Shown: one piece after another, positions 15,290-44,275 of the stretch | Layout of the letters: each line of letters opens with the position of its first letter | How positions within the stretch are numbered: the stretch's first letter is position 1 | Source of the DNA: Paraburkholderia sp. FT54 | GTDB taxonomy: Bacteria > Pseudomonadota > Gammaproteobacteria > Burkholderiales > Burkholderiaceae | DNA: 64,000 nucleotides | Direction of reading: 5' to 3' | NCBI RefSeq assembly: GCF_031585635.1 | Contig: NZ_CP134195.1 | Coordinates: forward strand, 2,666,001-2,730,000 | Notes under the pieces: model-generated | Databases searched by the model: none | Told to the model about the DNA's origin: nothing | The model's input: only the letters and a program-made list of their open reading frames with translations | Program-made: the position numbers and the translations under genes

Positions 15290-16189
15290 TCAACGTCGCC
15301 CTGTGGCGCCCACGCCGACAGTCGCGAGCCCGCCGTCGGTGACATAAGGCACGAACCCGGCTTCCGTAATCCGCGCCGCGGTGGCGGCGGCGCACGTGTC
15401 GTCGGCGGGCGGGCAATAGTCGATGGCCAGCACTGGCAGTTTGTATTGCTCGCGGATGATCGCCGTCTGCATCAGCAGCCAGGCGCGATCGGCCTGCGGC
15501 ACTTCCGTATAACGCTGCTTGCCGGCATCCCAACCGCGATACAGCGATTCGAACGCCACCAGGTAGGCAAGATCATGGACTCGCGGCAAGACCTCGAAGC
15601 CGCGATTGAAGATCAGTTGCGCCCTCGGATAACGCGTCCTGATCGCGCGGATGACGCGCACCAATCCAGCCTCCTGCGCGGCTCGCGTGGCGTCGGTTTT
15701 GGCGATCAGGTGGTAGGAGTCGAGCGTGTCGAGGAAAAAGCCCCGATAGCCTTTTTTCCATAGCGGTGCAATCACCTTGTCCACGAAAAACGCAGGCCAT
15801 TCGGCCGCTGTCTGATCGATCACATGCGAGGCCCACGCCTCGTTGACGCCTGGCAGCCACGCGCGCGGCATGGCCCTGTAATACGAGCGATGCGGGTTCA
15901 CCTCACCCACGCTCACGTAAGCGAACCACGCCGGATGCGTGTTCGCGTGAGCGCGCGGATCGAAGTGCGCGTCGGGGTCGATCACCACGACATCGAATCT
16001 GGCCAGTTCTTCAACCGGCGGATTCGCGCCGTAGAACAGCGCCACCGACGGCCCCGTGGGCGCATCCGCCGCGCCCTGCGCGTGCGCCACCGAAGCCAGC
16101 GCGCCCAACGCGGCCATGCGCGCGAATCGGCTGACACGGCGCAACAGCGCGCGCAATGTGAAACGTCGGTCGTGATCGTGCTCGGACAA
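15290..16189 (-). CDS. Stand-alone PelA-type glycoside hydrolase (GH166-like), secreted
   Basis: A 299-residue protein with a signal peptide (hydrophobic 24-36, cleavage near AHA-Q) and one (beta/alpha)8 domain homologous to the N-terminal hydrolase domain of PelA. It keeps the apparent active-site set: VSVGEV near 92, FFLDTLDSY at 151-159, NRGFE at 195-199 and AFESLYRGW at 212-220. Glu214 lines up with the catalytic Glu218 reported for P. aeruginosa PelA (number from memory). The family cuts alpha-1,4-GalNAc-rich Pel chains. TTG 16189 is used because GAGGAA precedes it. It lies 149 bp after pelG and 45 bp before galE. In Pseudomonas this activity is fused within PelA; here a separate gene carries the intact copy. 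Confidence 0.85.
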   Translation of the reverse strand: MSEHDHDRRFTLRALLRRVSRFARMAALGALASVAHAQGAADAPTGPSVALFYGANPPVEELARFDVVVIDPDAHFDPRAHANTHPAWFAYVSVGEVNPHRSYYRAMPRAWLPGVNEAWASHVIDQTAAEWPAFFVDKVIAPLWKKGYRGFFLDTLDSYHLIAKTDATRAAQEAGLVRVIRAIRTRYPRAQLIFNRGFEVLPRVHDLAYLVAFESLYRGWDAGKQRYTEVPQADRAWLLMQTAIIREQYKLPVLAIDYCPPADDTCAAATAARITEAGFVPYVTDGGLATVGVGATGRR

Positions 16190-19349: not shown

Positions 19350-20356
19350 GACCAGTACTTCACAACCGGTTTGAGTGTGGGCAACGCGGCGGCATTGCCC
19401 AGCGACGCGAGAAGCTGCTTGACGCGAGCGTAGTCGCCGCGCAGGAAGTCGGCTTCAGCCAGCCACGGCACGAGCCGTTCGCGCGGGAAACCGAGCGCGA
19501 GCGCGCGGCCAATATATTCGTGCGCGGCATCCGGCTGGCTGCTCGCCAGCGCGAGACGGCCGCGAATCAGCCACAGCGCGGCATCCCCCGGATCGGTCTC
19601 GAGCGCCGCCTGCGCGTAGCGGTCGGCTTGTTGCAGCGTATGGCGATAGACCGCGCCCTGCACCAGGTTCTGGTACACGAGTTCGAAATAAAGCTCGGCG
19701 AGCATCCGGTTGAGCGTGTGGCGTTCGACGTCGCTGTCGGTCGTTTCCAGCGCTTTGCTGGCCCGGAAGATCTTCTGCATGATTTCGTTTTCGGCGTGAT
19801 CCAGCGTACCGTAAGCGATCAGGCGAATGTCTTCGAGCGGGTCGGCAAGCAACTCGCGCAGCAACGTGCCCGTAGTGCGGGTCGGCATGTTCTGGATCGC
19901 CACCAGCGCGGACAGCCGGTCGGTGGGCGACACCTGGGTATTGGCAAGGCGCGCCTGCAGCCGCGCACCGCCGCCGTGCGACACACGCGACACCAGGTAG
20001 GTGACGAATTCCGGGCGCGGCACATCGGCGAGCTGATCGCTGTCCTTGTTGCCCGGAAAGAGCGCCGCCCACACGCAGCTGCTCAGCACGACGAGGCCGC
20101 CGAACAGCGGCACGAAGGTACAGGCGAGCCACAGGAACAGGAACGACACCACTCGGGGCTCACGATAATTCGACGGCAACCATGCGCTGAACGCGGCTGC
20201 TTCGGCGAGTCCCGCCACCGCTTGCAGCGCGAGAAAGCGCACCAAAGGATCGATCGCGCCGGCTGGTTGCAGCAGGCTCGCGATCGCCAGATATTGCATG
20301 ATCACGGCCACCACGGCCGCAAGCGCGCTGACGACGAGAGAAAGGGTCTTAGACAT
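19346..20356 (-). CDS. pelE: Pel inner-membrane protein PelE
   Basis: A 336-residue protein with two N-terminal membrane segments (about 7-30 and 67-100) and a helical TPR-like cytosolic part containing repeats such as ALETDPGDAALWLIRGRLAL. This matches PelE, part of the DEFG synthase complex. It overlaps pelD by 8 bp and pelF by 4 bp, so the three are probably translated together. Confidence 0.9.
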   Translation of the reverse strand: MSKTLSLVVSALAAVVAVIMQYLAIASLLQPAGAIDPLVRFLALQAVAGLAEAAAFSAWLPSNYREPRVVSFLFLWLACTFVPLFGGLVVLSSCVWAALFPGNKDSDQLADVPRPEFVTYLVSRVSHGGGARLQARLANTQVSPTDRLSALVAIQNMPTRTTGTLLRELLADPLEDIRLIAYGTLDHAENEIMQKIFRASKALETTDSDVERHTLNRMLAELYFELVYQNLVQGAVYRHTLQQADRYAQAALETDPGDAALWLIRGRLALASSQPDAAHEYIGRALALGFPRERLVPWLAEADFLRGDYARVKQLLASLGNAAALPTLKPVVKYWS

Positions 20357-21791
20357 CGAGGCCGCTTCGTTTGAGAAGACGCATCAGCGCCGCGCCCGGC
20401 TCGTCGCCCTCGAGGTGGAGCGTATGAACGCCGACGCGCGCGCGTTCCAGGTCGGTGTTGAACTGGGCCGTGAGGCTGGCCTCGATCCGCGCCAGATAGC
20501 CGTCGATCCCGGTCGTGTCGGTAGCCGGCATCAGGTTCACCAGCACCGACTGCTTGGCCGTCTGCACCGGCCACATCACGTCGAGTGAACGGCGTCGGCG
20601 CATGACGTGCTCGAACAGCGAGTCGCCCTCTTCATCGCGCGGAAACGCCAGTGCGACGAGCGACGACGCCACGCCCGCCTTCTGCTGAAGACGCGTGAGG
20701 CGGCTCAGGTCGAGCGCGAACTCGTACGGGCAATTCGGCACGCGGTCCAGAATGCGCTGCACGAAAGCGGAATGCTCGACGCCGTCGGCGTAATAACCGA
20801 GCAACACCAGCAACAGTTGCAGGTTGTCGAAATTGAGCGACAGGAACGGCATGCGCTTGACGACGAGCAGCGCGCGCAGCTCACCGTTCGCGGACACCAG
20901 CGGCGCGCAGACGAGGTACTGGCTGACCGGCAGCACCGTGTCTTCGTTCTTCAGATGCGCGACGCTCAGCGTGGTGAGCGCATGCGTGACGAGTTGATCG
21001 TGCACGGCGAGTTCGAACGCGTCGCCGATCTGCGCGATGGCCTGCGTGCCGAGCTTGCCGCGATGCACCGGATACAGCGCCGCAACCTCGATCTGGCAGG
21101 CCTGCGCGACGAACTCGAGCAGACCGCCCGCGCCGTCAAGCGGATCGCCGCCCGACGGATCGCCGCCCGACGGATCGCTTTCCTTGCCCGCCGCCGGCAC
21201 GGCAAGCGCCGTATCGGTCGCGACCGAGAGACGGCGCAGCTCGGTAATCGAATCGCGCAACGTGGTCGGACGCGAAAGCAGGTCCTTTTCGAGCCGCTCG
21301 TGCGACAGCCGCATCAGGTAGTGGCTGTTGGTCAACGCCACGAGACGGTCGTTCAGGTAGTCGTTCAACGAGGACGCGCGCCCGGCGCGGCTGCCCCATG
21401 TATCGCCGAAATGCCCGGCGAGAATCGTCTGGATCAAACCGCCCGCGAAATACAACGCCGGGAACGGGCCGCCGTGCGGATAAAAGAGCGCCCATGCGCC
21501 GAGCATGAAAGCCCCGCTCAGCAGGCCGAGCAGACTGCCGTAGCGCAGGGCCACCAGCAATGGCACCAGCCACAGCCACGGAAAACCGGCGTGCAGCAGC
21601 AACGCGTCTTCAGGATGAAGCCAGCGCGCCACGGCCAGTACCACCAGCACGAGCACGACGGTCTCCACGATCGCGAACGGCCGCGCCACCGCGGGCGCCA
21701 GCAAGCGGCGCACGCGTCCGAGATTGCCGAACGGATGCGCATGGCGCGGCTTCGAGGCGCCCGGGTTGTTTTCCACGGCTGCGGTATTCAC
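20349..21791 (-). CDS. pelD: Cyclic-di-GMP receptor PelD
   Basis: A 480-residue inner-membrane protein. Four hydrophobic segments lie between about residues 40 and 130, followed by a GAF-like domain (about 215-350) and a degenerate GGDEF domain. No GGDEF signature remains, but the inhibitory-site motif RSLD at 401-404 is kept and Arg435 lies 31 residues later. This mirrors the RxxD plus distant Arg that bind c-di-GMP in P. aeruginosa PelD (D370 and R402, from memory). Binding activates Pel synthesis post-translationally. A GTG start at 21791 is preferred (AAGGA 8 bases upstream). A short duplicated SGGDP segment in a linker near residue 210 comes from a 15-bp direct repeat. Confidence 0.92.
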   Translation of the reverse strand: MNTAAVENNPGASKPRHAHPFGNLGRVRRLLAPAVARPFAIVETVVLVLVVLAVARWLHPEDALLLHAGFPWLWLVPLLVALRYGSLLGLLSGAFMLGAWALFYPHGGPFPALYFAGGLIQTILAGHFGDTWGSRAGRASSLNDYLNDRLVALTNSHYLMRLSHERLEKDLLSRPTTLRDSITELRRLSVATDTALAVPAAGKESDPSGGDPSGGDPLDGAGGLLEFVAQACQIEVAALYPVHRGKLGTQAIAQIGDAFELAVHDQLVTHALTTLSVAHLKNEDTVLPVSQYLVCAPLVSANGELRALLVVKRMPFLSLNFDNLQLLLVLLGYYADGVEHSAFVQRILDRVPNCPYEFALDLSRLTRLQQKAGVASSLVALAFPRDEEGDSLFEHVMRRRRSLDVMWPVQTAKQSVLVNLMPATDTTGIDGYLARIEASLTAQFNTDLERARVGVHTLHLEGDEPGAALMRLLKRSGLDV

Positions 21792-21881
21792 GGCCAGTTC
21801 CTTATGACATGTCGGGTTTCGGCTTGCGGGCCGCACTTCGGGCGCAAGCCGGCAACCTCGGGGATAGGCTTATTGACGTTC

Positions 21882-25400: not shown

Positions 25401-26478
25401 GGCTCGAAGTGGCCGCGGCGGGCACAGCGGCCGCGCTTTTCGCGGGCGCAGCAGTGGGCGCCGCGACGCGCACGAGATGCACGGCGCGCGAGCCGTGCGT
25501 GCGAGTGCGCATGGCGAGACCGGACCCGGCTTGCGGGCCGTCCATATAAGCGTACTGCCTTTGCGAACCGTCTTCGCGCGCGCGTTCGCGGATAAAGTCG
25601 ACGAGGCGCAGCGCGCCGTCTTCATCAGGCTGAACCTGCGCATAGCCGGCCAGCGCCTTCGCGTAACGGTCGACGAGGTCCGCACGGTGTGCCGCGCGCG
25701 CCAGGTTCAGCAGCACGACGAGCGTCTCGTGATCGTGGGCAAATGCGGCGCCGTGTTCGTTGGCGGCAGCGAGCGCTTCGTCGAGCAGATTGCCCGATTG
25801 CAAGGCGCGAATGCCTTCGATAAAACACTGACGCTTCGCATCGAACGTCGCCGCGCTCGCTTGCAGGCCGAACCAGCCATTCGCCGCGCCGCGATAATCG
25901 CCGCCATACATGGCGAAACGCACCACTTCGCGATTCCAGCGCGTTTGCTGCGCCGGGTCCTGCGCGGCAAGACGCGCATAGAGCTGGCCGGCGAGCTGTT
26001 GCGCGTTCACCGATGCAGCCGCCTCGGCCAGCATCTGCAGATCGGCATTCGACCACGTCAGCGCCGCCGCATTCGTGAGTTGCGTACGCAAATGGGCGAG
26101 CGCGGCATCGCGGCCCGGGTCGTTCGCGGGCATCGCGAACGTCTCGCGCGTGTCGACCGTCAGACGCAGCAACTGCGCCGCGCGGCGCATCTGATCGCCC
26201 GGAATCGCCTCCATGCGTGTGGCGATACGGCGCGCGTCCTCGTTGCGTCCGAGACGCACATACTGCGTGCCGAGCACCGAGAGGATCTCCGTGTTGTCGG
26301 GCTGCACACGCAGCCATGCTTCCAGATAGGCAATGCTGAGATCGCTCGGCGCGTCGGTTGACGTCATCCGGCTGCGCAGACCGCCGCGCGGATGCACGAG
26401 ATACAGCGTGATCAACACGACGCCCGCGAGCAACAGGACGAGCCACGTTGGCGCGATTCGTGGGCGACTATCGGCCAC
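22471..26478 (-). CDS. pelB: Pel outer-membrane export porin PelB (TPR plus beta-barrel)
   Basis: A 1335-residue protein: one N-terminal membrane segment (about 11-29), a long periplasmic superhelix of TPR repeats to roughly residue 1000, and a C-terminal 16-strand-type beta-barrel ending in aromatic RYSWFY. It exports Pel through the outer membrane and positions PelA through its TPRs. An Ala/Ser-rich low-complexity stretch (about 340-375) interrupts the TPRs. It is somewhat longer than P. aeruginosa PelB (about 1190). The GTG start at 26478 overlaps pelA by 11 bp. Confidence 0.94.
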   Translation of the reverse strand: MADSRPRIAPTWLVLLLAGVVLITLYLVHPRGGLRSRMTSTDAPSDLSIAYLEAWLRVQPDNTEILSVLGTQYVRLGRNEDARRIATRMEAIPGDQMRRAAQLLRLTVDTRETFAMPANDPGRDAALAHLRTQLTNAAALTWSNADLQMLAEAAASVNAQQLAGQLYARLAAQDPAQQTRWNREVVRFAMYGGDYRGAANGWFGLQASAATFDAKRQCFIEGIRALQSGNLLDEALAAANEHGAAFAHDHETLVVLLNLARAAHRADLVDRYAKALAGYAQVQPDEDGALRLVDFIRERAREDGSQRQYAYMDGPQAGSGLAMRTRTHGSRAVHLVRVAAPTAAPAKSAAAVPAAATSSPATAAASAAAPATASNSASASTDVPSLLYQSFLESGDLPNAQRVATEQVGKNPGSPLWTRRLAQVAEWNHASPLALQMWLAYAQATHDPEGWKNVKRLAPMLNDDNAYLAALIQASNAAPGDLKLIDSVVAAYERLGRPDDALAFLRGRQRNSPAEAIDSRLGQLAERSGHDDEALAYYRKLNQLYPSNTQYALRTASLLYRHGDYKGALDTLLAARRGARDDDVLFWRNAAQLARLLQRDDIANDAYRHLLASGQATPEDLSAMTYFYDAYPVDAARTSELQFRRDHSQRALQSAIHYYTDAEQYDRVDALLNSVTPEQLRAGEGDPAFLRVRAEYYRQTDRPLDALHDLQHAVSLPGATLDLRAALLWTLVDYGSEAQLRKAVAEWRDAPAQAPALWGPLAAALMRLNRPQAALAYLRLQSASMSRDPLWQLTYAEAQDMAGRSDLAWSIRRNVWRQMQQEEAAIRANTEQGRIVLRTRASQGSEVREQMLGRRVTLASIFDNADVSKAFLIDLLASDAGRNDNNDARRTLLGDVAGLPPAQPAKAHAAASPDQAQLTSSVARDVALAWAMSHEADPLAKRWLARQYANVLAQPAEQLIAIALAENDKPAMERLLDQQGARLPLYNRIDASIAVDRPGTAEKLAFQGLEGAPYDSELHGRLEQTALTWPQSLDASVTSYVEHPLDYVEQTLAGSIKVADFYMVGVNGVQRFQHSTDESQLTNVPSVDRSVEVYARRQTYDTAFVVTAGRREALDSFYSVSVGAEWGRNSPLSVAVKAGRNQTARESQALQVGGMKDNVIGTITYRVTQQLYATGTVEADRFYSQARNYLGSGVLSTGEIGYRIRTNYPDYTLRLVGAHGDYSASGAADGLISRLIPVAAGPVNASTFIPQTYSQYGLFVGFGNDLIDQYTRAWRPFLDVGLLHDSFQGWGPGLSLGLAGTVFGGDHAALFFSHQRVSHLGTPVTQIGARYSWFY

Positions 26479-29263
26479 AGGCGACCTCGACTGACCGGTA
26501 GTTCAGTTTCTGTCCGACGTCAGCCGGCGTATCGAAACGCAGGAACTCGCCATCGCGACGCGTGGCGACAGCCTGTGTGTCGACGCTGACCTTGCATTGC
26601 TGCGCGTTGGCCAGCCTGACGAACGGCTGGTAGTGCCCGGCGAATTCGAAACGCATGCCTTGCGCCGTGCGCCGGAAGTTGCGCACGAAACCGTTGGCTT
26701 CGCCGATATACGGCGCTCTTTCCGCGCTCGCGGTCGCGGTCGTTGCGTTGGCGATCGCAAAGCGGGCACTGCCGCCGTCGATATGGATATAGGTGCCATC
26801 AGAGCCCGTTGCAAAACCGGTCACGCCGGAAGCGTTATCGAGCGACGGCCTGGCCGCTTGCGGCCAGTGCAACTCGCGCACCTCGCCGTTGCCGCGCACG
26901 ATCCAGTCGTTCGCCTGCGGGCCCACCTCTTTCGCCACGGCGAACGTGTGCCAGTCGAGCACCTTGCGGATGTACTCGCTCACATACACCGGCATCACCG
27001 GCTGCTTGAGCACCGTCGAGAAGATCTGGTCGAGCGCGCGCAGCGAGGCCACCTTGGTGCCGCTATACATGTGGTAGTAAATGTCGATCGGCTTGAAGCG
27101 CAGCGGCCGATCGGTCATCGCGAAGGTTTCGAGCACGCGCTGGAAACCATAGAACGGACCTTGCCAATCGTTCGTGTAGACGTTCTCGTCCTGATTCGGC
27201 GCATACACCTGATACGCGCCCGGCCCCTTGTCCACGCCGATCGGTGCGATGTTGGTCCAGCTATCGGCCGATTTCGTGATGACCGTGTCGCCGCCGTTGA
27301 AGTTGTAGACGCCGGCCTCGTACACCTTGCGCACGACGAAACCCGGCGGCCGGCAGTCGCCGGACCATTGCAGCAGCACGGTCTTCTTTCCCGGCGGCGC
27401 AAGACGCGTGTTGATGTAGTCGATCGAACCCGTGATCTCACGGTCGATATTGAAGCGGTAACCCGGAATGTTCAGCGAGAACGCCGCGTCGCCGCCGCCG
27501 CGGTCCACCTGGGCGCCGGTCTTGCTGTCCACCTGCTCCCATTGAAACGGATGCGAATACGTGTGCGTGCCGATTTCGACGTGCTGCAGCGCGAACATCT
27601 TGCGTGCGATCTCTTCGAGGCGCGGCGAGATATCCGGATGCAGGCCCTTCGGACCGACCTCGCCTTCGATCACCGAGAGCGTCATCGGCACCTGATAGCG
27701 AGTGAAAATCTGCTGATACAGCGCTTCGCCGGAATAGTCGGGGCCGGGGAATTCGGCGCGCGAGGCAAAACCGTCGCCGTCCACGTGCGACATGAACAGC
27801 CGCCGCCCGTTTTCGGTCGTGACGCTCGGCGACGGCATGTCCTGCAAATGCAGTGCCGCCTTCATGAACGCCATCGGCTGAATCGCCCAGCGCTCCTGCT
27901 CGATGCTGTCGAGCGACGTCACGGTATACGGACTGAGCGCGTAGCCGCCCCACGGCGTGAGCGCGACCTGATCGAGCAGCACGCCGTTGGCCGAGACGCG
28001 CAGCAGCGACTGGCTGCGCGAACCCACGCGCACGCCTTGCAGATCGCGCGGCTCGGGCTTCGGGCTGATCTCGAAGCCGACCATCGGATCGCTCCTGACC
28101 ACCGTGACCGGCCCCGCCAGCGTGCCGCTCACGGCTTGCAGATCGAGCGCCGCGCCGGCGGAGCCGGCGGCGTCGAAGCCGAACTGACCGAGGAACGCAA
28201 CCGGAACATGATCCGCCATGCGGGCCGCGACCCAACGTTGCCACGCTTGCGGATCGGGCACCGCGCCGCGCTGGATCCAGGCGACGACGCCCGCATAGCG
28301 ATCCGGCGTAACGGCGTCCGGCAGACGCGACGAAAAATCGGCGTACTCGACGTCGTAGCCCATATAGTTGAGCGGCGTGGCCAGATCGCGCACACCGGCG
28401 CTCAGGTCGAGCGGATCGCTGGTGTCGCGGTCCTGCACGACGAGAATCTTGCGCGGCAGCACTTCGATCTTGCCGATGCCGACGACATCGCGCGCCTTGT
28501 TCGTCACATACGGCAGCATGCCGGCCGACACGACGCGCGCGGCCGTGTCACGGGCGCACTGCCGGTCGGTGCGCGCGCAATACTCCACGGACACGACCGG
28601 CACGCCGCTTTGCCGCGTGAACGCACGCGCCTCTACGATGCGTTGCGCGCGCAACGATTCGGTAACGTCGAGAAGCTGGCCGCTGTCGTCCAGACCGCGA
28701 ACCAGCGAGTCGCCCACCACCGCGTACAGCGACTTCGCAACCGGCAGCGCGTTGCGCATGACATCGGCGCCGCCCGCCACGAGGCGCGCGTCCGGGTGAG
28801 TCTCATGAATGCGGCCCGCAGCGGCCACGGCCGCCGGCGTGTCGAGCAGGAAGCCACGATAGCCGCGCTGCCACAGCGGCTCAATCTGACTGGCGAGAAA
28901 CGCGTCGGCGGAACCGGCGGACTCGGCACCGTTGGTACGCGCGATCCAGGTGGTATGAGCCAGCGGATGAGCCGCCGGATCGAATCCCGTGGCGGGATCG
29001 ACCACGACGGCATCGAATGCCTGCAATTCGCCAACAGGCGGATTGGCCGCATAGAAGAAAGCGAGGTTGGGTTGAGACGCGGCAGCGGACTGCAACGGCG
29101 CAACTTCCGCCGGCGTCACTGCATGAGTCGCGAGCGGTGCAATACCGGCCGCCCCAAGCATTACCGCAATCAAGGTACGCGTAAGAAATCGTTGGCCCGC
29201 ACGTTCGACAGCCCCGCAAGAGTCCCCGCCGGCGCACGCCCGGGCCCGCTTCTTCATCGCCAA
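26468..29263 (-). CDS. pelA: Periplasmic Pel deacetylase PelA with degenerate hydrolase domain
   Basis: A 931-residue exported protein with a signal anchor at about 27-47. Domain order: PelA hydrolase domain (65-270), a linker/reductase-like domain (270-470), CE4-like deacetylase (485-770) and a C-terminal beta domain. The deacetylase is intact: HVDGDGF gives Asp495 and Asp497, THTYSH gives His567 and His571. These sit exactly 33 residues before P. aeruginosa D528, D530, H600 and H604 (numbers from memory). The hydrolase domain is not intact: VSVGEV is gone, LDTLDSY reads LDTPAAV, NRGFE reads GGADV and FESLYRGW reads GDSLVRGL. TTG 29263 has GGGGA 7 bases upstream; ATG 29257 is the alternative. 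First gene of the operon. Confidence 0.93.
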   Translation of the reverse strand: MAMKKRARACAGGDSCGAVERAGQRFLTRTLIAVMLGAAGIAPLATHAVTPAEVAPLQSAAASQPNLAFFYAANPPVGELQAFDAVVVDPATGFDPAAHPLAHTTWIARTNGAESAGSADAFLASQIEPLWQRGYRGFLLDTPAAVAAAGRIHETHPDARLVAGGADVMRNALPVAKSLYAVVGDSLVRGLDDSGQLLDVTESLRAQRIVEARAFTRQSGVPVVSVEYCARTDRQCARDTAARVVSAGMLPYVTNKARDVVGIGKIEVLPRKILVVQDRDTSDPLDLSAGVRDLATPLNYMGYDVEYADFSSRLPDAVTPDRYAGVVAWIQRGAVPDPQAWQRWVAARMADHVPVAFLGQFGFDAAGSAGAALDLQAVSGTLAGPVTVVRSDPMVGFEISPKPEPRDLQGVRVGSRSQSLLRVSANGVLLDQVALTPWGGYALSPYTVTSLDSIEQERWAIQPMAFMKAALHLQDMPSPSVTTENGRRLFMSHVDGDGFASRAEFPGPDYSGEALYQQIFTRYQVPMTLSVIEGEVGPKGLHPDISPRLEEIARKMFALQHVEIGTHTYSHPFQWEQVDSKTGAQVDRGGGDAAFSLNIPGYRFNIDREITGSIDYINTRLAPPGKKTVLLQWSGDCRPPGFVVRKVYEAGVYNFNGGDTVITKSADSWTNIAPIGVDKGPGAYQVYAPNQDENVYTNDWQGPFYGFQRVLETFAMTDRPLRFKPIDIYYHMYSGTKVASLRALDQIFSTVLKQPVMPVYVSEYIRKVLDWHTFAVAKEVGPQANDWIVRGNGEVRELHWPQAARPSLDNASGVTGFATGSDGTYIHIDGGSARFAIANATTATASAERAPYIGEANGFVRNFRRTAQGMRFEFAGHYQPFVRLANAQQCKVSVDTQAVATRRDGEFLRFDTPADVGQKLNYRSVEVACGR

Positions 29264-29899
29264 AATCTTTTCCCCGTTCAGTCTGAACGCGAGCGGCGTT
29301 CTCCTTCGGGGAGAATGTTTCCGCTAGCGGATTTTCGAGCCGGCCCGTCGGCATTATTTACATCGCGCAAATCCGACGTTGCGCCGGATGCGAAACCGAC
29401 TTTTTGTTTGATTACTGGTAAGGCGGTGGAAGATATCACATGACATGTGGCGTCTCAAGCTCGCTTATGTCAGCGCGTGCATCCCAATAGTTAAATAGAG
29501 GTAAATGGATCCGCTTGAATTCAAAGGCAAACGATTGCGCCCACCGGCGCAGCCGATACCAATGCCGTCATTGATTAAAATCGCTTCGTCAAGCGGGTCG
29601 GCAATGTGTTGGAAAATCGCCGCGGTATGTCAAATCCATCTCTCCGGCACTTGATGTTCTGATCGGCAAATCCTCGCGAAGGAATGCACTGTCTCGTGTC
29701 TTTCCCGATTCTTTCAAATATTTTCAAGCTGTACCTAACACGCGTATTCGATAAGCTCGCCCGCTCGGCGTCAGCACTGAATGCAGCAATAAACACCGGG
29801 ACGCAAAACAGAAATCGATTTTTCGGGTACTCTCGAGCGCGTTCGATTCAATGATGAAAAATAAATTGGCCCCCTAAAGAAATCTAAAGGGATGCCGTT
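29264..29899. other. Intergenic region between pelA and the GH135 gene
   Basis: Over 600 bp, noticeably richer in A/T than its surroundings. It must carry the divergent promoters for the pel operon (minus) and the riboswitch-led transcript (plus). No credible protein gene. An 8-base segment ATTGGCCC at 29865-29872 is complementary to GGGCCAAT at 29993-30000 and may pair with it in the leader RNA. Confidence 0.6.
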
Positions 29900-29908
29900 A
29901 GTGCAGTT

Positions 29909-29978
29909 TGGGCAAACCCGGAGCGATCCGGCGACGCAAAACTACAGGGACTCCCTCGCGGGAGTTTGCCAGTTGCCC
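29909..29978 (+). ncRNA. Cyclic-di-GMP class I (GEMM-I) riboswitch aptamer
   Basis: The conserved GEMM-I blocks occur in order. GGGCAAACC is at 29910-29918, with the ligand-binding G (Vc2 G20) at 29911. A 4-bp hairpin with a GCGA tetraloop follows (29919-29930). GACGCAAA is at 29933-29940, including the stacked A (Vc2 A47) at 29938. A second helix has ACT and GG pairing to CC and AGT, capped by CTCCC-TCGC-GGGAG. The closing segment GCCAGTTGCC (29968-29977) places the second ligand-binding base (Vc2 C92) at 29977. Gaps between blocks fit the family. It lies 60 bp before the GH135 start codon. G at the first position favours c-di-GMP over cGAMP-type variants. No covariance search was run. Confidence 0.85.
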
Positions 29979-29996
29979 GCCGTGTCCACGGCGGGC
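29975..29996 (+). promoter_or_regulatory. Expression-platform hairpin overlapping the aptamer end
   Basis: A 10-bp perfect stem, GCCCGCCGTG with CACGGCGGGC. Its 5' arm includes C29977, one of the ligand-contact bases, so hairpin formation and ligand binding look mutually exclusive. There is no U-run after it, so it may gate translation or Rho access rather than act as a simple terminator. Confidence 0.6.
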
Positions 29997-30005
29997 CAAT
30001 CGACA

Positions 30006-30023
30006 GCGGTTTCGAAAAACCGC
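30006..30023 (+). promoter_or_regulatory. Hairpin just before the GH135 ribosome-binding site
   Basis: GCGGTTT-CGAA-AAACCGC forms a 7-bp stem ending 3 bases before AGGAGG at 30027. It could affect ribosome access or mRNA stability. Confidence 0.5.
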
Positions 30024-30036
30024 GTCAGGAGGCTAC

Positions 30037-30894
30037 ATGCAAAAAAGTCGGGGAATGGGGGCGGTTGCGTTGGTTGCTTGGGAGTCGGCGGACGGAAGTC
30101 GCCTCGCGAGGCGAACCGGCAGAGGTCTGAAACGGGCCGGACTCATCGCAGGTCTGCTGCTGGCATGCCTCAGCGGCACGGCCTTGGCGGCCAGCACGGC
30201 GACCAGTCTCGTCGTACCCTCCTACTTCAACGCCACGGGCAGCGTCGCGAACTGGAACAGCCTTGTGACCACGGCGCGCAAAGTGCCGACCACCGCCATT
30301 CTGAATCCGAACAGCGGACCGGGCGTCAAGGAAGATCCGAACTATGCCGCCGCCGTCACGAAGCTTCGCGCCGCGGGCGGCAAGGTACTGGGCTACGTCT
30401 CCACCTCGTACGGCAAGCGCCCGCTCTCCGCGGTCGTGACCGACATCAACACCTACCTGGCGCTCTACAAGGTGGATGGCTTCTTCATCGACGAGATGAC
30501 GTCCGACAGCCAGATGTCGCACATCCAGTTCTATCAGTCGATCTACAACTACATCAAAGGACTGAATGCCACCTACTCGGTGACGGCCAATCCTGGCACC
30601 AACATTCCTGAGCTCTACGCGAGCCTGCCGACGGCCGACCAGTTCGTCGTGTTCGAAAGCACTGCGAAGAATTACGCAAAATATCAACCGATGAGCTGGC
30701 AAGCCACCTATCCGAAGAGCCGCTTCGTGCACATGGTGTACGGCGCGACCGCCGCGCAGTTGCCAGGAGTCGTACAATACGCGAAGACGCATGGCGCGGG
30801 CGGCGTGTATGTCACGTCGCTGTCCGGGGGTAATCCGTATAAGGCGCTGCCGGCCTACTGGAATGACGAGGTAACCGACGCCGCCGCGCCTTGA
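30037..30894 (+). CDS. Secreted GH135 (spherulin-4/Sph3-like) glycoside hydrolase
   Basis: A 285-residue protein with an N-terminal export signal (hydrophobic 34-51, cleavage probably after ALA near 51; LLLAC at 40-44 also allows a lipoprotein reading). The rest is one spherulin-4 domain: LVVPSYFNA near 58, TTAILNPNSGPG at 85-96, VLGYVSTSYG at 117-126. DGFFIDEM gives Asp152-Glu153, and VVFEST gives Glu207. Fungal Sph3 uses Asp166, Glu167 and Glu222 (from memory), so the 55-residue spacing fits its 56. Sph3 cuts alpha-1,4-GalNAc in galactosaminogalactan, a polymer chemically close to Pel. AGGAGG precedes ATG 30037; a TTG at 29908 would place the riboswitch inside the gene and was rejected. Divergent from pelA. 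Confidence 0.87.
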   Translation: MQKSRGMGAVALVAWESADGSRLARRTGRGLKRAGLIAGLLLACLSGTALAASTATSLVVPSYFNATGSVANWNSLVTTARKVPTTAILNPNSGPGVKEDPNYAAAVTKLRAAGGKVLGYVSTSYGKRPLSAVVTDINTYLALYKVDGFFIDEMTSDSQMSHIQFYQSIYNYIKGLNATYSVTANPGTNIPELYASLPTADQFVVFESTAKNYAKYQPMSWQATYPKSRFVHMVYGATAAQLPGVVQYAKTHGAGGVYVTSLSGGNPYKALPAYWNDEVTDAAAP

Positions 30895-40460: not shown

Positions 40461-40736
40461 GTGAACCGGAATCGAGAAGCGAGAGGGAACGAGGAGAAAA
40501 ATCAACGCACGCGCCCACCACCATGGACGCAGCAAAGCAATTGTTTTCTAGAAATACCGCCACGGCGCGCGCAGCGCCGCCGGAAGAATGACGGCCTTGT
40601 CACTCACGCGGAATGTGCGAGAACACGGAGTCCAGATGTTCCACTACCGCGACTGTGCGAGGAGCCCGCTTATGAGCTGGCGGTGTGAAGCCGCTTTCTT
40701 TGCCTACTTTCTTTGCGGCGGCAAAGAAAGTAGGTG
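40461..40736. other. Noncoding segment between porin remnant and IS
   Basis: About 275 bp with no credible gene. Its last 45 bp are the hairpin repeat next to the IS end. Confidence 0.5.
40703..40734. repeat. Interspersed hairpin repeat (REP-like) abutting the IS
   Basis: CCTACTTTCTTTGC, a GGCG loop and GCAAAGAAAGTAGG form a perfect 14-bp stem. Repeats of this look are common in Burkholderia and Paraburkholderia intergenic DNA (recall, not checked). The IS begins 2 bp later, so the repeat was probably its target. Confidence 0.65.
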
Positions 40737-40799
40737 TGTAGTGGTCCAATGGCTCTGGACACCTCTAAAGGGGATAATTCTCCAACTGAGGTGAGAGAC

Positions 40800-41102
40800 A
40801 TGGGCAGACGGAACCTGACTGACGAATTCAAGGCAGAGGCAGTGCAACTGGTGGTTGGGCAGGGTTATTCGATCACCAGGGCTTGCGAGGCGCTGGGCGT
40901 GGGCGACTCGGCTTTGCGGCGCTGGGTGGCGCAGTGGCGTGCGCAGCAGGCTGAGCCGCCACGCAGCGACATGCAGATCCAGCGCGACCAGCGACGCATC
41001 CGTGAGCTGGAAGCGCGCGTGATGGAGCTTGAGCGGGAGCGCGAGATACTAAAAAAGTCTACGGCCTTCTTCGTCAAGGAAATGGATCGCTCCTCGAAGT
41101 GA
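40800..41102 (+). CDS. IS3-family transposase OrfA
   Basis: A 100-residue DNA-binding subunit. The HTH shows DEFKAEAVQLVVGQGYS and ACEALGVGDSALRRWVAQW (residues 8-51), followed by a leucine-zipper-like coiled coil (RIRELEARVMELEREREILKK). Alone it binds the ends; with OrfB, joined by a -1 frameshift, it gives the full transposase. It overlaps orfB by 4 bp. Confidence 0.92.
   Translation: MGRRNLTDEFKAEAVQLVVGQGYSITRACEALGVGDSALRRWVAQWRAQQAEPPRSDMQIQRDQRRIRELEARVMELEREREILKKSTAFFVKEMDRSSK
41051..41057 (+). promoter_or_regulatory. -1 ribosomal frameshift site
   Basis: A AAA AAG in the orfA reading phase (Leu-Lys-Lys) is the standard slippery heptamer of IS3 elements. OrfB lies in the -1 frame, so slippage here yields OrfAB. 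Confidence 0.85.
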
Positions 41103-41935
41103 TCCGTTCGCTGAAGAAGGCCTGGCCGGTGAGTCTGATGTGCCGTTTGCTGAAAGTGCCGCGAAGCAGCTATTACGCCTTTGCTGCGCGGCCACGCAAA
41201 CCAGTCGCATCGCCTCCACTGCTGAAGGCCGTGCGTCAGATTCACAGCGAAAGCCGCAGCAGTTACGGCAGTCGCCGGATGGCGCAGGCACTGCAGCAGC
41301 AGGGTTACGCGATCGGACGCTACCGGGCGCGTTCGCTGATGCGCGAGGCGCAACTGGCTGTGGCCAGGCGGCGAACGCACCGGTACCGCAAGGCCGGGGG
41401 TGAAGCCCTGATTGCACCTAACCTGCTTGAGCGGCAATTCGAGCCGGGCGCGATCAACCGGGTATGGGCGGGCGATATCACGTATGTGAGAACGCGTCAG
41501 GGGTGGTCCTATCTGGCCATCGTGATGGATCTGCACTCGCGCCGCATCGTAGGCTGGGCGTTCGCCTTGCAGGCGGATACGGAACTGGTCATCCAGGCGC
41601 TACAGCAGGCCCGGCAGAAGCGGCGCCCGGCAGCGGGGCTGATGTTCCACTCCGATCAGGGCTGCCAGTACACGAGCGAGCGCTTTGTGAGCGATCTGAA
41701 GGCGAACGGGATCGTCCAGAGCATGAGCAGAAAGGGCAATTGCTGGGACAACGCGGTGGTCGAGCGCTTCTTCAGAAGCCTGAAAAGTGAATGGATTGGC
41801 GAACAGGAATACGGCAGCCACGAAGTCGCCCGCCGCGACATCGCGGGCTACATCGCAGACTTCTACAACTACCGGCGCATTCATTCGGCGGCAAACAATT
41901 TGCCTCCAGTGCGATACGAAACTTCGATTTATTGA
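41099..41935 (+). CDS. IS3-family transposase OrfB (DDE integrase)
   Basis: A 278-residue catalytic subunit. An HTH_21-like region (about 30-90) precedes the integrase core with its DDE triad: Asp in WAGDITYV near 127, Asp in FHSDQGCQYTS near 186, and Glu in DNAVVERFF near 224, followed by the YNYRRIH motif. GTG 41099 overlaps the orfA stop; production as OrfAB by frameshift is more likely. Intact, so the IS may still move. Confidence 0.93.
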   Translation: MIRSLKKAWPVSLMCRLLKVPRSSYYAFAARPRKPVASPPLLKAVRQIHSESRSSYGSRRMAQALQQQGYAIGRYRARSLMREAQLAVARRRTHRYRKAGGEALIAPNLLERQFEPGAINRVWAGDITYVRTRQGWSYLAIVMDLHSRRIVGWAFALQADTELVIQALQQARQKRRPAAGLMFHSDQGCQYTSERFVSDLKANGIVQSMSRKGNCWDNAVVERFFRSLKSEWIGEQEYGSHEVARRDIAGYIADFYNYRRIHSAANNLPPVRYETSIY

Positions 41936-42142
41936 AAAACCTCTTTGTGGGTGTCCAAAGAGGCTTGACCACTACAGTCGGTTCGCTTTTCCTGACGTCG
42001 AGGGTAAATCCCCTTTCACACAAAGCAGCGGCGTCTGCTGCTTGCCCCGCTCCCAATCTATTACGCTGCTATTGCAAATGCTTACGCGCGGATGCCGTTT
42101 GTGAAAAAGACTTATCACAACAGGATCAGGGATAAAGCAAAT

Positions 42143-44275
42143 ATGAAAAAGACAGCCCGAAGGCAAAAGCCGGAATACTCACGCAAGGCAAACAACGGCG
42201 GTCGTTTTCTATCGTGGAAAAAAGAGGCGCACCGCGGACTCGCGGCAGCCGCCTCAGTATCGTTACTGTTCACGCTCGCAGCGTGCGGCGGAAGCGGCAG
42301 TAGTGATGCGTCGCCCGCCGCTACCTCTCATGAATCTTCGACACCGACACTCGAATCGACAGCAGCGCTTGCAGCAAAATCAACGACTGTTCCGCTTGCT
42401 CTGTCGTTAAAGATGGGCGGAAGCAGCCTGCCTTCGGACACTACGGTTGACCGATTCATCGTTAAATACAAATCGACTACGGCGGAACGCACGTCAACGA
42501 CGGCGGTGCAGTCCAGACTTGACCGCCTCGCCGGAGTTTTCCCATCTAAAGCGCGTCATTTGCGTCGCATGGGAGTCGGGTCGGATGTAATAACGACAGA
42601 GCGTAAACTGAACGCCGACGATGCCAGGAAGTTCATGCGCGCCATTGCGTCGGACCCGGACGTTGAATATGTAGAGCCGGATGTCCCTATATCCGTAAAC
42701 TCTACTCCCAACGACCCGTTTTACAATCTGCAATGGGGAGTCTTATCAAACCTTGACCCTGGCCAGTCCAATGTGGGGATTCGCGCGGCCAAGGCGTGGG
42801 ACAACGCGACAGGTGCGGGAATCACAATCGGACTTGTGGACAATGGCGTAGCAAGCCATAGCGACCTGAACGCCAATATCATCCCGCAAGGCTTCGACTT
42901 CACCTACCTCGGCCCCCCGGGTGGCTCAAATCCTGGCGTAGCAGGAGGATGTGGCTACGTCACGTATCACGGCACTCACGTTGCTGGCATCATGGCCGCC
43001 GTGACGAACAACGGCATCGGCATTTCAGGAATCGCCCCATCGGCAAAAGTTGTTTCCGCGCGGGTGCTCAACGGATGCGGAACGGGTGTGCTTTCCTCCG
43101 CTTCGGATGCGGTGATGTGGGCATCTGGCGGATCGGTTCCGGGCATTCCCGACAATACTCGCCCCGTAAGTGTTATCAACTTGAGTATCTCGGCTCCAGG
43201 CCAATGTTCAAAATCGATCCAGGCCTCAGTTGATTATGCAACCAGTCACGGCGTGGTCGTGATTGCTGCCGCAGGGAACGATAACAAGGATGCATCGAAT
43301 AGCCAGCCTGCCAATTGTCACGGTGTTATTGCTGTCGGCAATACTCAGGAAAACGGTGCGAGAGCCAATGATTCCAACTATGGGGCTACTGTTGATATTG
43401 CCGCGCCAGGAACAAATATTTATTCAACCTATAACGATGGTACCCGGGGGCTTGGCGCTGAAAGTTACGCTTACTTATCCGGCACTTCGATGGCCACGCC
43501 GATGGTTAGCGGCGTCGTTGCGCTGGTGAAGTCAGTGGCGCCGATGTCGTTAAGCTCCGCGGAAATGCGCACGCTAATCACTCAGAACGCGCAACCATTT
43601 CCTAAACAGCCGGACCAACCGCTAGGATCGGGCATTATTGATGCGGCGGCGGCAGTCGCTGCGGCGAAAGCCGGTAAGATTCCGGCAGCGGCAGATTTCA
43701 GTTGTTCGCAGGGTGAGGCTGGGATGACGGTGACATGCACAGACCTCTCCACGGCGAGAGGCGCCACCTCGATCAGGTCTTGGGCCTGGAACTTCGGCGC
43801 GAGTAATCAAGCTGATTTGGTCACCAAGCAATCAACGAACCCGAACTACAACTATGAATATCCTGGCACCTACAACATCACATTAACTACGACTGACAGC
43901 ACGGGCGCAATTAGCTGGCTTACGCGCCCTTTTTTGGTCGCCCCCCCGGTAGCAACTGCTATCAGCCCTGAGACCCACGTAATGGTCCCAGCCCAAGCCA
44001 ACGTAAGGAAGTATTTTTCGCTCGATGTTCCGGTTGGCACGACATTCCTGAGGGTAGCAATGGCAACCCTGAGTAGCCTTGCAACTGGAACGATGTATGT
44101 CACGGCTGGTTCACCCACTACGGTAGGCGCGGCTTGCGTCCGGTCTTATTCTGCCTCAACGGGCGGCAGCGCCAGTTGCATCATGCCGAACCCGACAGCG
44201 GGCACTTACTACATTATTCTGAGTCCTAACGCGAACCTTAATGGCGCTGACCTTTTTGCCACCTTTAATCCATAA
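42143..44275 (+). CDS. Subtilisin-like (S8) serine protease lipoprotein
   Basis: About 710 residues. A lipoprotein signal ends LAAC (Cys48). A linker leads to an I9-type inhibitor prodomain (about 100-185) with DRFIVKYK and DPDVEYVEPD, then the S8 domain with Asp233 (GLVDNG), His276 (HGTHVAG), Asn379 (AAGND) and Ser449 (SGTSMATP). A PKD-like domain (about 530-610) and a PPC-like C-terminal domain follow. It is predicted to sit outside the cytoplasm and cut proteins. GC content is lower than the surrounding genes, and the IS ends 166 bp upstream, suggesting acquisition. ATG 42143 is chosen because it begins a normal basic signal; 42092 is possible. Confidence 0.9.
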   Translation: MKKTARRQKPEYSRKANNGGRFLSWKKEAHRGLAAAASVSLLFTLAACGGSGSSDASPAATSHESSTPTLESTAALAAKSTTVPLALSLKMGGSSLPSDTTVDRFIVKYKSTTAERTSTTAVQSRLDRLAGVFPSKARHLRRMGVGSDVITTERKLNADDARKFMRAIASDPDVEYVEPDVPISVNSTPNDPFYNLQWGVLSNLDPGQSNVGIRAAKAWDNATGAGITIGLVDNGVASHSDLNANIIPQGFDFTYLGPPGGSNPGVAGGCGYVTYHGTHVAGIMAAVTNNGIGISGIAPSAKVVSARVLNGCGTGVLSSASDAVMWASGGSVPGIPDNTRPVSVINLSISAPGQCSKSIQASVDYATSHGVVVIAAAGNDNKDASNSQPANCHGVIAVGNTQENGARANDSNYGATVDIAAPGTNIYSTYNDGTRGLGAESYAYLSGTSMATPMVSGVVALVKSVAPMSLSSAEMRTLITQNAQPFPKQPDQPLGSGIIDAAAAVAAAKAGKIPAAADFSCSQGEAGMTVTCTDLSTARGATSIRSWAWNFGASNQADLVTKQSTNPNYNYEYPGTYNITLTTTDSTGAISWLTRPFLVAPPVATAISPETHVMVPAQANVRKYFSLDVPVGTTFLRVAMATLSSLATGTMYVTAGSPTTVGAACVRSYSASTGGSASCIMPNPTAGTYYIILSPNANLNGADLFATFNP

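What the first reader, a model, noticed from the sequence alone, without database searches (positions are those of the whole stretch)
29909..30894. Sph3-like GH135 hydrolase under a c-di-GMP riboswitch, divergent from the pel operon
The plus-strand gene at 30037 encodes a secreted spherulin-4 domain with the acid residues in place (D152, E153, E207). Fungal Sph3 of this family cuts alpha-1,4-GalNAc polymers chemically close to Pel. It starts beside pelA, in the opposite direction, and its leader matches a GEMM-I aptamer. The same second messenger that switches on PelD would thus also control an enzyme able to trim or release the product. Sequence and location are seen; the link to Pel degradation is inference.
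Basis: partly seen in the sequence, partly recalled or inferred. Interest (0 to 1): 0.85.

Follow-up and report, generated by a model that had tools for sequence, protein, structure and literature searches.

The report
Riboswitch-controlled biofilm-cutting enzyme beside pel
Beside its genes for the biofilm sugar Pel, this Paraburkholderia-like bacterium carries a gene for a Sph3-like sugar-cutting enzyme that sits behind a flagellar-type promoter sequence and a match to the c-di-GMP riboswitch family, a layout predicted to make the enzyme when cells leave the biofilm to swim, which would likely help dissolve it.

Summary
Window 30037-30894 encodes a GH135/Spherulin-4 protein (Pfam E=7e-48; modelled fold matches Aspergillus Sph3, TM 0.88; D152, E153, E207 invariant). 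A c-di-GMP-I aptamer lies at 29901-29980; pelA diverges from it. These are the only Spherulin-4 match and the only c-di-GMP-I match in the 8.6-Mb genome.

The conserved unit is riboswitch plus hydrolase, not hydrolase plus pel. In 249 family genomes, 28 of 30 c-di-GMP-I sites precede a Spherulin-4 gene. 30 of 32 Spherulin-4 genomes carry pel, but only 4 of those 30 have it within 20 kb.

Two features were not in the finding. A sigma-28 (FliA)-type promoter abuts the aptamer in 21 of 23 Paraburkholderia-Caballeronia-Robbsia-type leaders scored, but 0 of 13 Ralstonia-Oxalobacteraceae-type ones. A conserved two-state platform predicts that bound c-di-GMP frees an anti-SD 'GCC' that masks the ribosome site, switching the enzyme OFF, inverse to PelD. 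Low c-di-GMP plus flagellar transcription would give hydrolase, hence dispersal.

Caution: fungal Sph3 does not cut native, partly deacetylated Pseudomonas Pel, so the target may be GalNAc-rich stretches or another polymer. The window's PelA has lost its own hydrolase motifs; a separate GH166 gene keeps them.

The parts
29875..29901 (+). sigma-28 (FliA)-type promoter element: TAAAG (29875-29879), 14-nt spacer, GCCGTTAG (29894-29901); directly abuts the aptamer
   Evidence: consensus recalled (E. coli FliA) and compared with the genome's own flagellar region
29901..29980 (+). c-di-GMP-I (GEMM-I) riboswitch aptamer
   Evidence: RF01051, 49.3 bits
29973..29999 (+). hairpin T (UUGCCCGCCGU / ACGGCGGGCCAA): captures the aptamer's 3' strand (UUGCC) and the anti-SD GCC; predicted ligand-free, ON state
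   Evidence: covariation; row by row; ensembles
29995..29997 (+). anti-SD GCC, predicted to pair with 30031-30033 when the aptamer is bound
   Evidence: identical in 28 of 28 aligned leaders; pairing predicted
30002..30026 (+). hairpin S between the anti-SD and the ribosome-binding site
   Evidence: 5 of 7 counted pairs with compensatory change
30027..30033 (+). Shine-Dalgarno AGGAGG followed by C (GGC = predicted partner of the anti-SD)
30037..30894 (+). GH135 / Spherulin-4 glycoside hydrolase gene, 285 aa; signal-peptide-like N-terminus by eye to about residue 51; D152, E153, E207
26468..29263 (-). pelA, divergent neighbour; deacetylase motifs kept, hydrolase part a remnant
20349..21836 (-). 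pelD, c-di-GMP receptor; RxxD (RSLD) and the later R kept relative to Pseudomonas PelD
   Evidence: role of the residues recalled
15290..16189 (-). stand-alone PelA-type (GH166-like) hydrolase between pelG and galE
   Evidence: E=1.4e-45 to PelA hydrolase 5tcb

Best explanation
The gene at 30037-30894 encodes a GH135 (Sph3-fold) glycoside hydrolase whose mRNA leader holds a c-di-GMP-I aptamer that is predicted to block translation when c-di-GMP is bound, behind a promoter likely read by the flagellar sigma factor FliA, so that the enzyme would be made as cells leave the biofilm and would likely cut GalNAc-rich stretches of the cells' own Pel matrix. Step by step. Shown by sequence: the enzyme family and its acid residues; the aptamer family; the promoter-like element abutting the aptamer; two mutually exclusive leader folds with covarying hairpins; linkage of riboswitch and hydrolase across genera. 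Predicted: without ligand, hairpin T swallows the aptamer's 3' strand together with the anti-SD GCC, leaving AGGAGG open (ON). With c-di-GMP the aptamer keeps UUGCC, the freed GCC pairs with the GGC of AGGAGGC around hairpin S, and translation falls (OFF). Inferred: inverse control with PelD, which needs c-di-GMP to make Pel (recalled from Pseudomonas); FliA transcription in motile cells; secretion and attack on acetylated Pel. The split-off GH166 hydrolase in the pel operon would process the partly deacetylated stretches.
For: Family: Pfam 7e-48; Sph3 is the best structure hit by sequence and by fold (TM 0.88, E 3e-18, model pLDDT 95.5); acid residues identical in 49 of 49 sequences. Riboswitch; 28 of 30 family-wide sites precede this gene, and the three Oxalobacteraceae-type loci have it too. 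Platform: T and S covary (T 94.6% of cells paired, 2 of 8 pairs compensatory; S 5 of 7); GCC and GGC identical in 28 of 28; with the aptamer held in its Rfam fold, mean GCC:GGC pairing rises from 0.20 to 0.83 and the ribosome site becomes less accessible in 36 of 39 leaders. Where the SD is exactly AGGAGG, C follows in 17 of 18 of these genes but in 12 of 29 other genes of the same loci (p=0.0002; not phylogenetically independent), and the one exception is the Caballeronia grimmiae locus whose aptamer has decayed (L038). No U-tract terminator follows T on the + strand. Promoter: 21 of 23 leaders score at least 11/13 where 0.03 are expected; the window's site (12/13) scores above those found before its flagellin gene and two genes read as motA and flgK (11/13); FliA itself is encoded. 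Pel link: 30 of 32 Spherulin-4 genomes carry pelG against 74 of 217 others.
Against: Direction is computed, not measured. The GCC:GGC pairs never vary, so they carry no covariation, and only three pairs form; the accessibility change is modest (mean 0.46 to 0.37). The bound fold costs about 8 kcal/mol, so the switch would have to act during transcription. Five of 39 leaders do not favour the pairing (0.5 or less) even when bound, and five show it above 0.5 when free. The 13 Ralstonia-, MAG- and Oxalobacteraceae-type leaders scored lack the FliA motif. The exact FliA pattern alone is weakly specific in this genome (12 matches against 7 for the reversed control). Fungal Sph3 does not cut native Pseudomonas Pel, and the window's PelA keeps its deacetylase motifs, so its Pel is probably deacetylated in part. 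Deleting the hydrolase gene of the S. intermedius pel locus gave no phenotype. pel adjacency is rare.
Confidence: 0.5

Rival explanations
1. c-di-GMP switches the hydrolase ON, together with Pel synthesis: binding breaks hairpin T, which acts as a Rho-dependent or unusual terminator, and the enzyme trims Pel during synthesis as PelA's hydrolase does in Pseudomonas.
For: T is a strong G+C-rich hairpin that excludes the aptamer fold. PelA here has lost its hydrolase motifs. Pseudomonas PelA hydrolase makes secreted Pel during biofilm growth (PMC9894940; abstract and Discussion read).
Against: No U-run follows T in the leader. The conserved GCC and AGGAGGC are left unexplained. A stand-alone GH166 beside pelG already keeps the PelA-type hydrolase. 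FliA-type promoters point to motile cells.
Confidence: 0.2
2. The target is not self-made Pel but a foreign GalNAc polymer such as fungal galactosaminogalactan: swimming bacteria secrete the enzyme against fungal matrix.
For: Sph3 is specific for poly-GalNAc and does not cut native Pseudomonas Pel. Most loci are not beside pel. GH135 also occurs in bacteria without this leader.
Against: 30 of 32 Spherulin-4 genomes carry pelG, and the two exceptions are the weakest PF12138 matches of the sample with no RF01051 match. In one lineage the gene sits against pelA. Sph3 does disrupt GalNAc-rich Pel aggregates of Streptococcus intermedius.
Confidence: 0.2
3. Two unrelated facts: an ordinary secreted hydrolase under a c-di-GMP riboswitch, beside pel by chance and with no role in Pel turnover.
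For: pelG within 20 kb in only 4 of 30 genomes that have both; pelA the divergent neighbour in 5 of 33 loci.
Against: Gene-content association with pel, within the window's own genus too: 6 of 6 against 8 of 24, p=0.005 (counts).
Confidence: 0.1

Closest known systems
Sph3 of Aspergillus (GH135)
   Same: Same Pfam family, same barrel fold (TM 0.88), acid residues in register
   Different: Fungal, and I recall no riboswitch there; specific for poly-GalNAc and inactive on native Pseudomonas Pel. Activity of the window's enzyme is unknown
PelA hydrolase domain (GH166) and the stand-alone PelAH / SIR_1591 hydrolases beside Gram-positive pel loci
   Same: Hydrolase gene beside pel, often divergent; loss of the activity raises adherent biofilm in P. 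aeruginosa and B. cereus
   Different: Not PF12138; the window has its own GH166 in the operon as well. Deleting SIR_1591 in S. intermedius had no phenotype. I recall no riboswitch described for them
C. difficile c-di-GMP-I riboswitch upstream of CD2830, beside adhesin gene CD2831
   Same: c-di-GMP-I leader that lowers an exported protein when c-di-GMP is high, beside a surface-protein gene raised by c-di-GMP (PMC3649979 passages)
   Different: There the platform is a transcription terminator and, by recall, the product is a protease that frees cells by cutting adhesins; here predicted translational, and a glycan hydrolase
Bdellovibrio merRNA (c-di-GMP riboswitch RNA of the FliA-dominated attack phase)
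   Same: A c-di-GMP riboswitch RNA expressed in a motile phase whose promoters mostly carry the FliA motif (PMC3627812 passages)
   Different: merRNA has no conserved downstream gene and is proposed to store c-di-GMP
GEMM regulons with 'polysaccharide degradation' genes (comparative survey, 2013)
   Same: GEMM-linked polysaccharide-degradation genes counted (21 genes; PMC3766115 passages)
   Different: The passages I read name neither GH135, pel, FliA nor a switch direction

Membership tests
GH135 / Spherulin-4 (PF12138) | Profile match over the curated cut-off | tested here: met
   163.7 bits against 30.2
GH135 / Spherulin-4 (PF12138) | Sph3-type barrel fold | tested here: met
   Foldseek best hits 5d6t and 5c5g, TM 0.88 by query and 0.80-0.81 by target; model pLDDT 95.5
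GH135 / Spherulin-4 (PF12138) | Conserved acid residues D, E, E | tested here: met
   D152, E153, E207 invariant and aligned to Sph3; their catalytic role in Sph3 is recalled
GH135 / Spherulin-4 (PF12138) | Endo-alpha-1,4-N-acetylgalactosaminidase activity | not testable with these tools
   needs purified enzyme
c-di-GMP-I riboswitch (RF01051) | Covariance-model score over the gathering threshold, full length | tested here: met
   49.3 bits against 35, model 1-87 of 87
c-di-GMP-I riboswitch (RF01051) | Conserved alternative structure downstream of the aptamer that can act as a control platform | tested here: met
   covarying hairpins that exclude the aptamer fold; the direction of control is predicted only
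c-di-GMP-I riboswitch (RF01051) | Binding of c-di-GMP (not cGAMP) | not testable with these tools
   needs in-line probing
FliA (sigma-28) regulon | Promoter TAAAG-N14-GCCG(A/T)TAA at a fixed distance from the transcript | tested here: met
   12/13 in the window; 21 of 23 leaders of its side of the family at least 11/13 (window included), 0.03 expected
FliA (sigma-28) regulon | FliA-dependent transcription | not testable with these tools
   needs a fliA deletion and 5' mapping
GH166 (PelA hydrolase), window 15290-16189 | Homology to PelA hydrolase with the FESL glutamate and NRGFE kept | tested here: met
   E=1.4e-45 to 5tcb; motifs kept
GH166 (PelA hydrolase), N-terminal part of the window's PelA | FESL glutamate and NRGFE motif | tested here: not met
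   FESL reads GDSL, NRGFE lost, about 50 residues missing

The most novel reading that the evidence does not exclude
Burkholderiaceae carry a dedicated matrix-exit circuit: one secreted GH135 hydrolase transcribed by the flagellar sigma factor and translated only when c-di-GMP falls, through a riboswitch used for almost nothing else in the family, so that the messenger that switches Pel synthesis on through PelD switches Pel destruction off through RNA.
Probability: 0.42. Interest if true: 0.82.

Novelty: new variant of a known kind. Interest (0 to 1): 0.72.

Why it matters
Biofilm dispersal is usually explained by signals, while the enzymes that dissolve the matrix and how they are timed are rarely known. 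Here one short leader would combine both inputs of the motile-sessile decision (flagellar sigma factor and c-di-GMP) on a single matrix hydrolase, beside, or in the same genome as, the Pel machinery that c-di-GMP switches on. The direction of the switch, the promoter and the substrate can each be tested with one simple experiment. It would also give a function to a conserved gene that the listed records call 'spherulation-specific family 4 protein' or 'hypothetical protein'.

Tried and rejected
Mis-assigned helix: I first took GGGCAA/UUGCCC as the aptamer's closing helix. The Rfam structure line shows the core differently, so I repeated the ensembles with the Rfam pairs; the conclusion did not change. 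Model R1 and the count still contain the wrong, almost invariant helix; R1 was used only to find leaders.

First structure model (A1, 13 close sequences, signal peptide included) was poor, pLDDT 52; it was dropped and replaced by the mature chain with 49 sequences.

The whole-genome pattern for FliA sites was tried as a regulon list: 12 hits against 7 in the reversed control, too weak for that. Short protein pieces from 6 of the 12 hits gave one MHYT, one MreB and one sub-cut-off sCache match and otherwise nothing of use.

Conservation of the pel-divergent layout as the general rule: rejected. An intrinsic terminator in the leader: not found. The leader outside Burkholderiaceae and Oxalobacteraceae-type loci: not found in the 10 such loci scanned with R1 and Rfam.

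Paper searches for this arrangement: GH135 with Pel; PelA hydrolase with dispersal; c-di-GMP riboswitch with Ralstonia; Spherulin-4 with c-di-GMP; pel operon hydrolase domain in Burkholderia and Ralstonia; riboswitch with hydrolase and dispersal; GEMM with Burkholderia; FliA with riboswitch (101 papers, 20 listed); Sph3 with Pel (27 papers, 20 listed); 'spherulation-specific family 4' with Burkholderia. No listed title or abstract start describes it; only open-licence PMC papers are held. PMC11218506 (passages) was looked at for platform types only.

Full report
WHAT IS THERE. The window is 64 kb of an 8.65-Mb genome. Its closest relative for this gene among the genome-contig loci is Paraburkholderia sp. 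BL9I2N2, 90% identical in the best segment. Gene 30037-30894 (+) encodes 285 residues that match Spherulin-4 (PF12138) at 7e-48. By sequence the only convincing relatives of solved structure are the two Aspergillus clavatus Sph3 entries (2-3e-14). A model of the mature chain built on 49 sequences (pLDDT 95.5) has the same two entries as best fold matches, TM 0.88, with a GH191 galactosaminidase a distant third (TM 0.58). D152, E153 and E207 are identical in all 49 sequences, the window's included. The N-terminus has a signal-peptide-like stretch ending near residue 51 (by eye).

THE LEADER. RF01051 matches at 29901-29980 with 49.3 bits. In the whole genome this is the only RF01051 match and the gene is the only PF12138 match. 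pelA starts at 29263 in the other direction; the operon reads pelA-G, then a 299-aa hydrolase gene, then galE (pelC and pelE named by position, not by a profile). PelD keeps the RxxD motif and the later arginine of Pseudomonas PelD (the role of these residues is recalled).

CONSERVATION. In 249 genomes of the family, PF12138 occurs in 32 genomes (33 matches), RF01051 in 29 genomes (30 sites, stricter filters) and PelG in 104. By coordinates, 28 of the 30 RF01051 sites lie 165-301 bp upstream of a PF12138 match on the same strand; the other two are in one genome (G017). Of the five PF12138 matches without such a site, two have decayed aptamers that the wider leader model still finds (L023 at 82.7 bits, L026 at 51.3), two are the weakest matches, from one genus (G025, G130), and one is a second copy in G116. 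In the 33 loci the leader model finds 31 (all but L041 and L061), including three Oxalobacteraceae-type loci (L062 an unplaced Burkholderiales MAG, L063 a MAG, L064 IMCC9480) at 65-75 bits, which Rfam confirms. Elsewhere in the phylum PF12138 is rare (9 of 398 genomes, the window's included) and the leader was not found in the 10 loci tested. So the unit of inheritance is riboswitch plus hydrolase.

LINK TO PEL. Of 32 Spherulin-4 genomes 30 have PelG, against 74 of 217 without Spherulin-4 (Fisher p=6e-11; within the window's genus, 30 genomes as listed, 6 of 6 against 8 of 24, p=0.005; neither corrected for phylogeny). But PelG lies within 20 kb on the same contig in only 4 of the 30 (G000, G164, G201, G209; contig ends may hide some), and pelA is the divergent neighbour in 5 of the 33 loci (L032, L033, L035, L036, L039).

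PROMOTER. Directly before the aptamer stands TAAAG-N14-GCCGTTAG (29875-29901). I noticed it in the window first and then looked at the rest. One search scored 36 of the 41 leaders in hand (39 intact plus decayed L023 and L026); the five left out (L005-L008, L015) are Ralstonia-type and show no such motif. Of the 36, 23 come from the Paraburkholderia-Caballeronia-Robbsia side and 21 of these score at least 11 of 13; 22 of 23 lie 7-10 nt before the aptamer core (L030: 21). The two misses (L026, L022) show similar boxes with one extra spacer base. None of the 13 Ralstonia, REEB24-MAG and Oxalobacteraceae-type stretches scores above 8. The rate of such sites in 37 fetched loci (46 in 1.51 million positions, the GH135 sites included) gives an expectation of 0.03 among 23. 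In 60 kb around the genome's own flagellar genes there are five sites of 11/13 (0 or 1 in each of five shuffles): one before flagellin (PF00669), one each before genes I read as motA and flgK, and two before nothing I could name. A FliA gene is present (285 bits). No sigma-70-like site was found on the + strand between the genes. The exact pattern over the whole genome is weakly specific (12 against 7), so the evidence is position and conservation, not the motif alone.

PLATFORM. In an alignment of 28 leaders, hairpin T (29973-29999) pairs in 94.6% of cells with two compensatory pairs of eight, and hairpin S (30002-30026) has five compensatory pairs of seven; more divergent leaders keep T with other letters, some with one mismatch. 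T uses the aptamer's own 3' strand (UUGCC), so T and the bound aptamer exclude each other. GGCC in T's 3' arm and the GGC that ends AGGAGGC are identical in all 28. In 39 intact leaders (the decayed ones left out) folded freely, T forms (mean 0.85) and GCC:GGC mostly does not (0.20). With the aptamer held in its Rfam pairs and the ligand-contact bases (recalled) kept single, GCC:GGC rises to 0.83 (above 0.5 in 34 of 39, against 5 of 39 free) and the ribosome site becomes less accessible in 36 of 39; in the window 0.67 to 0.43. The bound fold costs about 8 kcal/mol, so it must be reached during transcription or paid by the ligand. Where the SD is exactly AGGAGG, a C follows in 17 of 18 of these genes against 12 of 29 others; the exception is the Caballeronia grimmiae locus L038, whose aptamer lost its second hairpin. 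There is no U-run after T. c-di-GMP-I switches are known to use either terminators or ribosome-site sequesters (PMC11218506 passages). I therefore read this one as translational and OFF.

THE OTHER HYDROLASE. PelA of the window has lost NRGFE, reads GDSL where FESL should be, and lacks about 50 residues, while the separate 299-aa protein keeps all of these and matches the Pseudomonas PelA hydrolase at 1.4e-45. Its relative in L039 reads GESL but also lacks NRGFE. Gram-positive pel loci have a comparable split. The GH135 is thus a second, separately controlled candidate galactosaminidase.

SUBSTRATE. Pel is a partly deacetylated alpha-1,4-GalNAc chain; Sph3 cut re-N-acetylated but not native Pseudomonas Pel, while PelAh released small amounts from native (PMC9135694 passages). 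Sph3 disrupted the GalNAc-rich Pel aggregates of Streptococcus intermedius but cannot disrupt Pseudomonas Pel biofilms (PMC12345266 passages). GH166 prefers partly deacetylated stretches relative to GH135 (PMC12054363 passages). Hence the caution on the target.

PRECEDENTS. C. difficile has a c-di-GMP-I leader that lowers CD2830 at high c-di-GMP beside a c-di-GMP-II leader on CD2831 (PMC3649979 passages). Bdellovibrio expresses a c-di-GMP riboswitch RNA in its FliA-dominated phase (PMC3627812 passages). A 2013 survey counted 21 GEMM-linked polysaccharide-degradation genes without naming them in the passages read (PMC3766115). The parts are known kinds; the combination, on a matrix hydrolase, I did not find described in the searches listed.

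Noticed in passing
window 26468-29263 (-) and 15290-16189 (-): Split PelA: the hydrolase part of pelA is a remnant (GDSL for FESL, NRGFE lost), and a complete stand-alone GH166-type hydrolase sits between pelG and galE; both states occur across the family.
   Followed up: partly
G024:C1:3029961-3030440 and similar places in other Ralstonia-type genomes: Several Ralstonia-type genomes have a long PelA with a complete hydrolase match plus a second long ORF with the weaker, partial type elsewhere, so perhaps a second PelA-like gene or pel-like locus.
   Followed up: no
G017:C36:248186-248274 and C9:578581-578669: The only two c-di-GMP-I sites of the 249-genome sample not in front of a Spherulin-4 gene; they also score highest (65-66 bits). 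What they control was not examined.
   Followed up: no
L026/L038 (Caballeronia grimmiae) and L023 (G160): Decaying aptamers before a kept GH135 gene; in L026/L038 the C after AGGAGG is lost as well, a natural test of the anti-SD idea.
   Followed up: partly
L041 (Burkholderia sp. 8Y, second copy); L061: GH135 copies with no leader: no R1 hit and no RF01051 hit.
   Followed up: no
L003-L016 and L018 upstream of the aptamer: Ralstonia-type leaders share a different conserved upstream stretch (TTTGCC ... TAGAGT) in place of the FliA motif; which sigma factor reads it is unknown.
   Followed up: no
L062:8674-8736, L063:8162-8224, L064:91-153 (all minus strand): Rfam 'Betaproteobacteria toxic small RNA' (RF02278) lies about 1.1 kb upstream of the riboswitch in all three Oxalobacteraceae-type loci.
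   Followed up: no
window 29870-29891: The FliA-type promoter overlaps an inverted repeat (CCCCCTAAAGAAATCTAAAGGG), terminator-like on the minus strand; perhaps chance.
   Followed up: no
window 40734-41935 (+): Two-ORF transposase (HTH_Tnp_1 and rve), followed by a subtilase with PKD and PPC domains at 42092-44275.
   Followed up: no
L064:1259-1400: In this leader the first conserved G of the aptamer core (GGCAAA) reads C, a position I recall as contacting the ligand.
   Followed up: no
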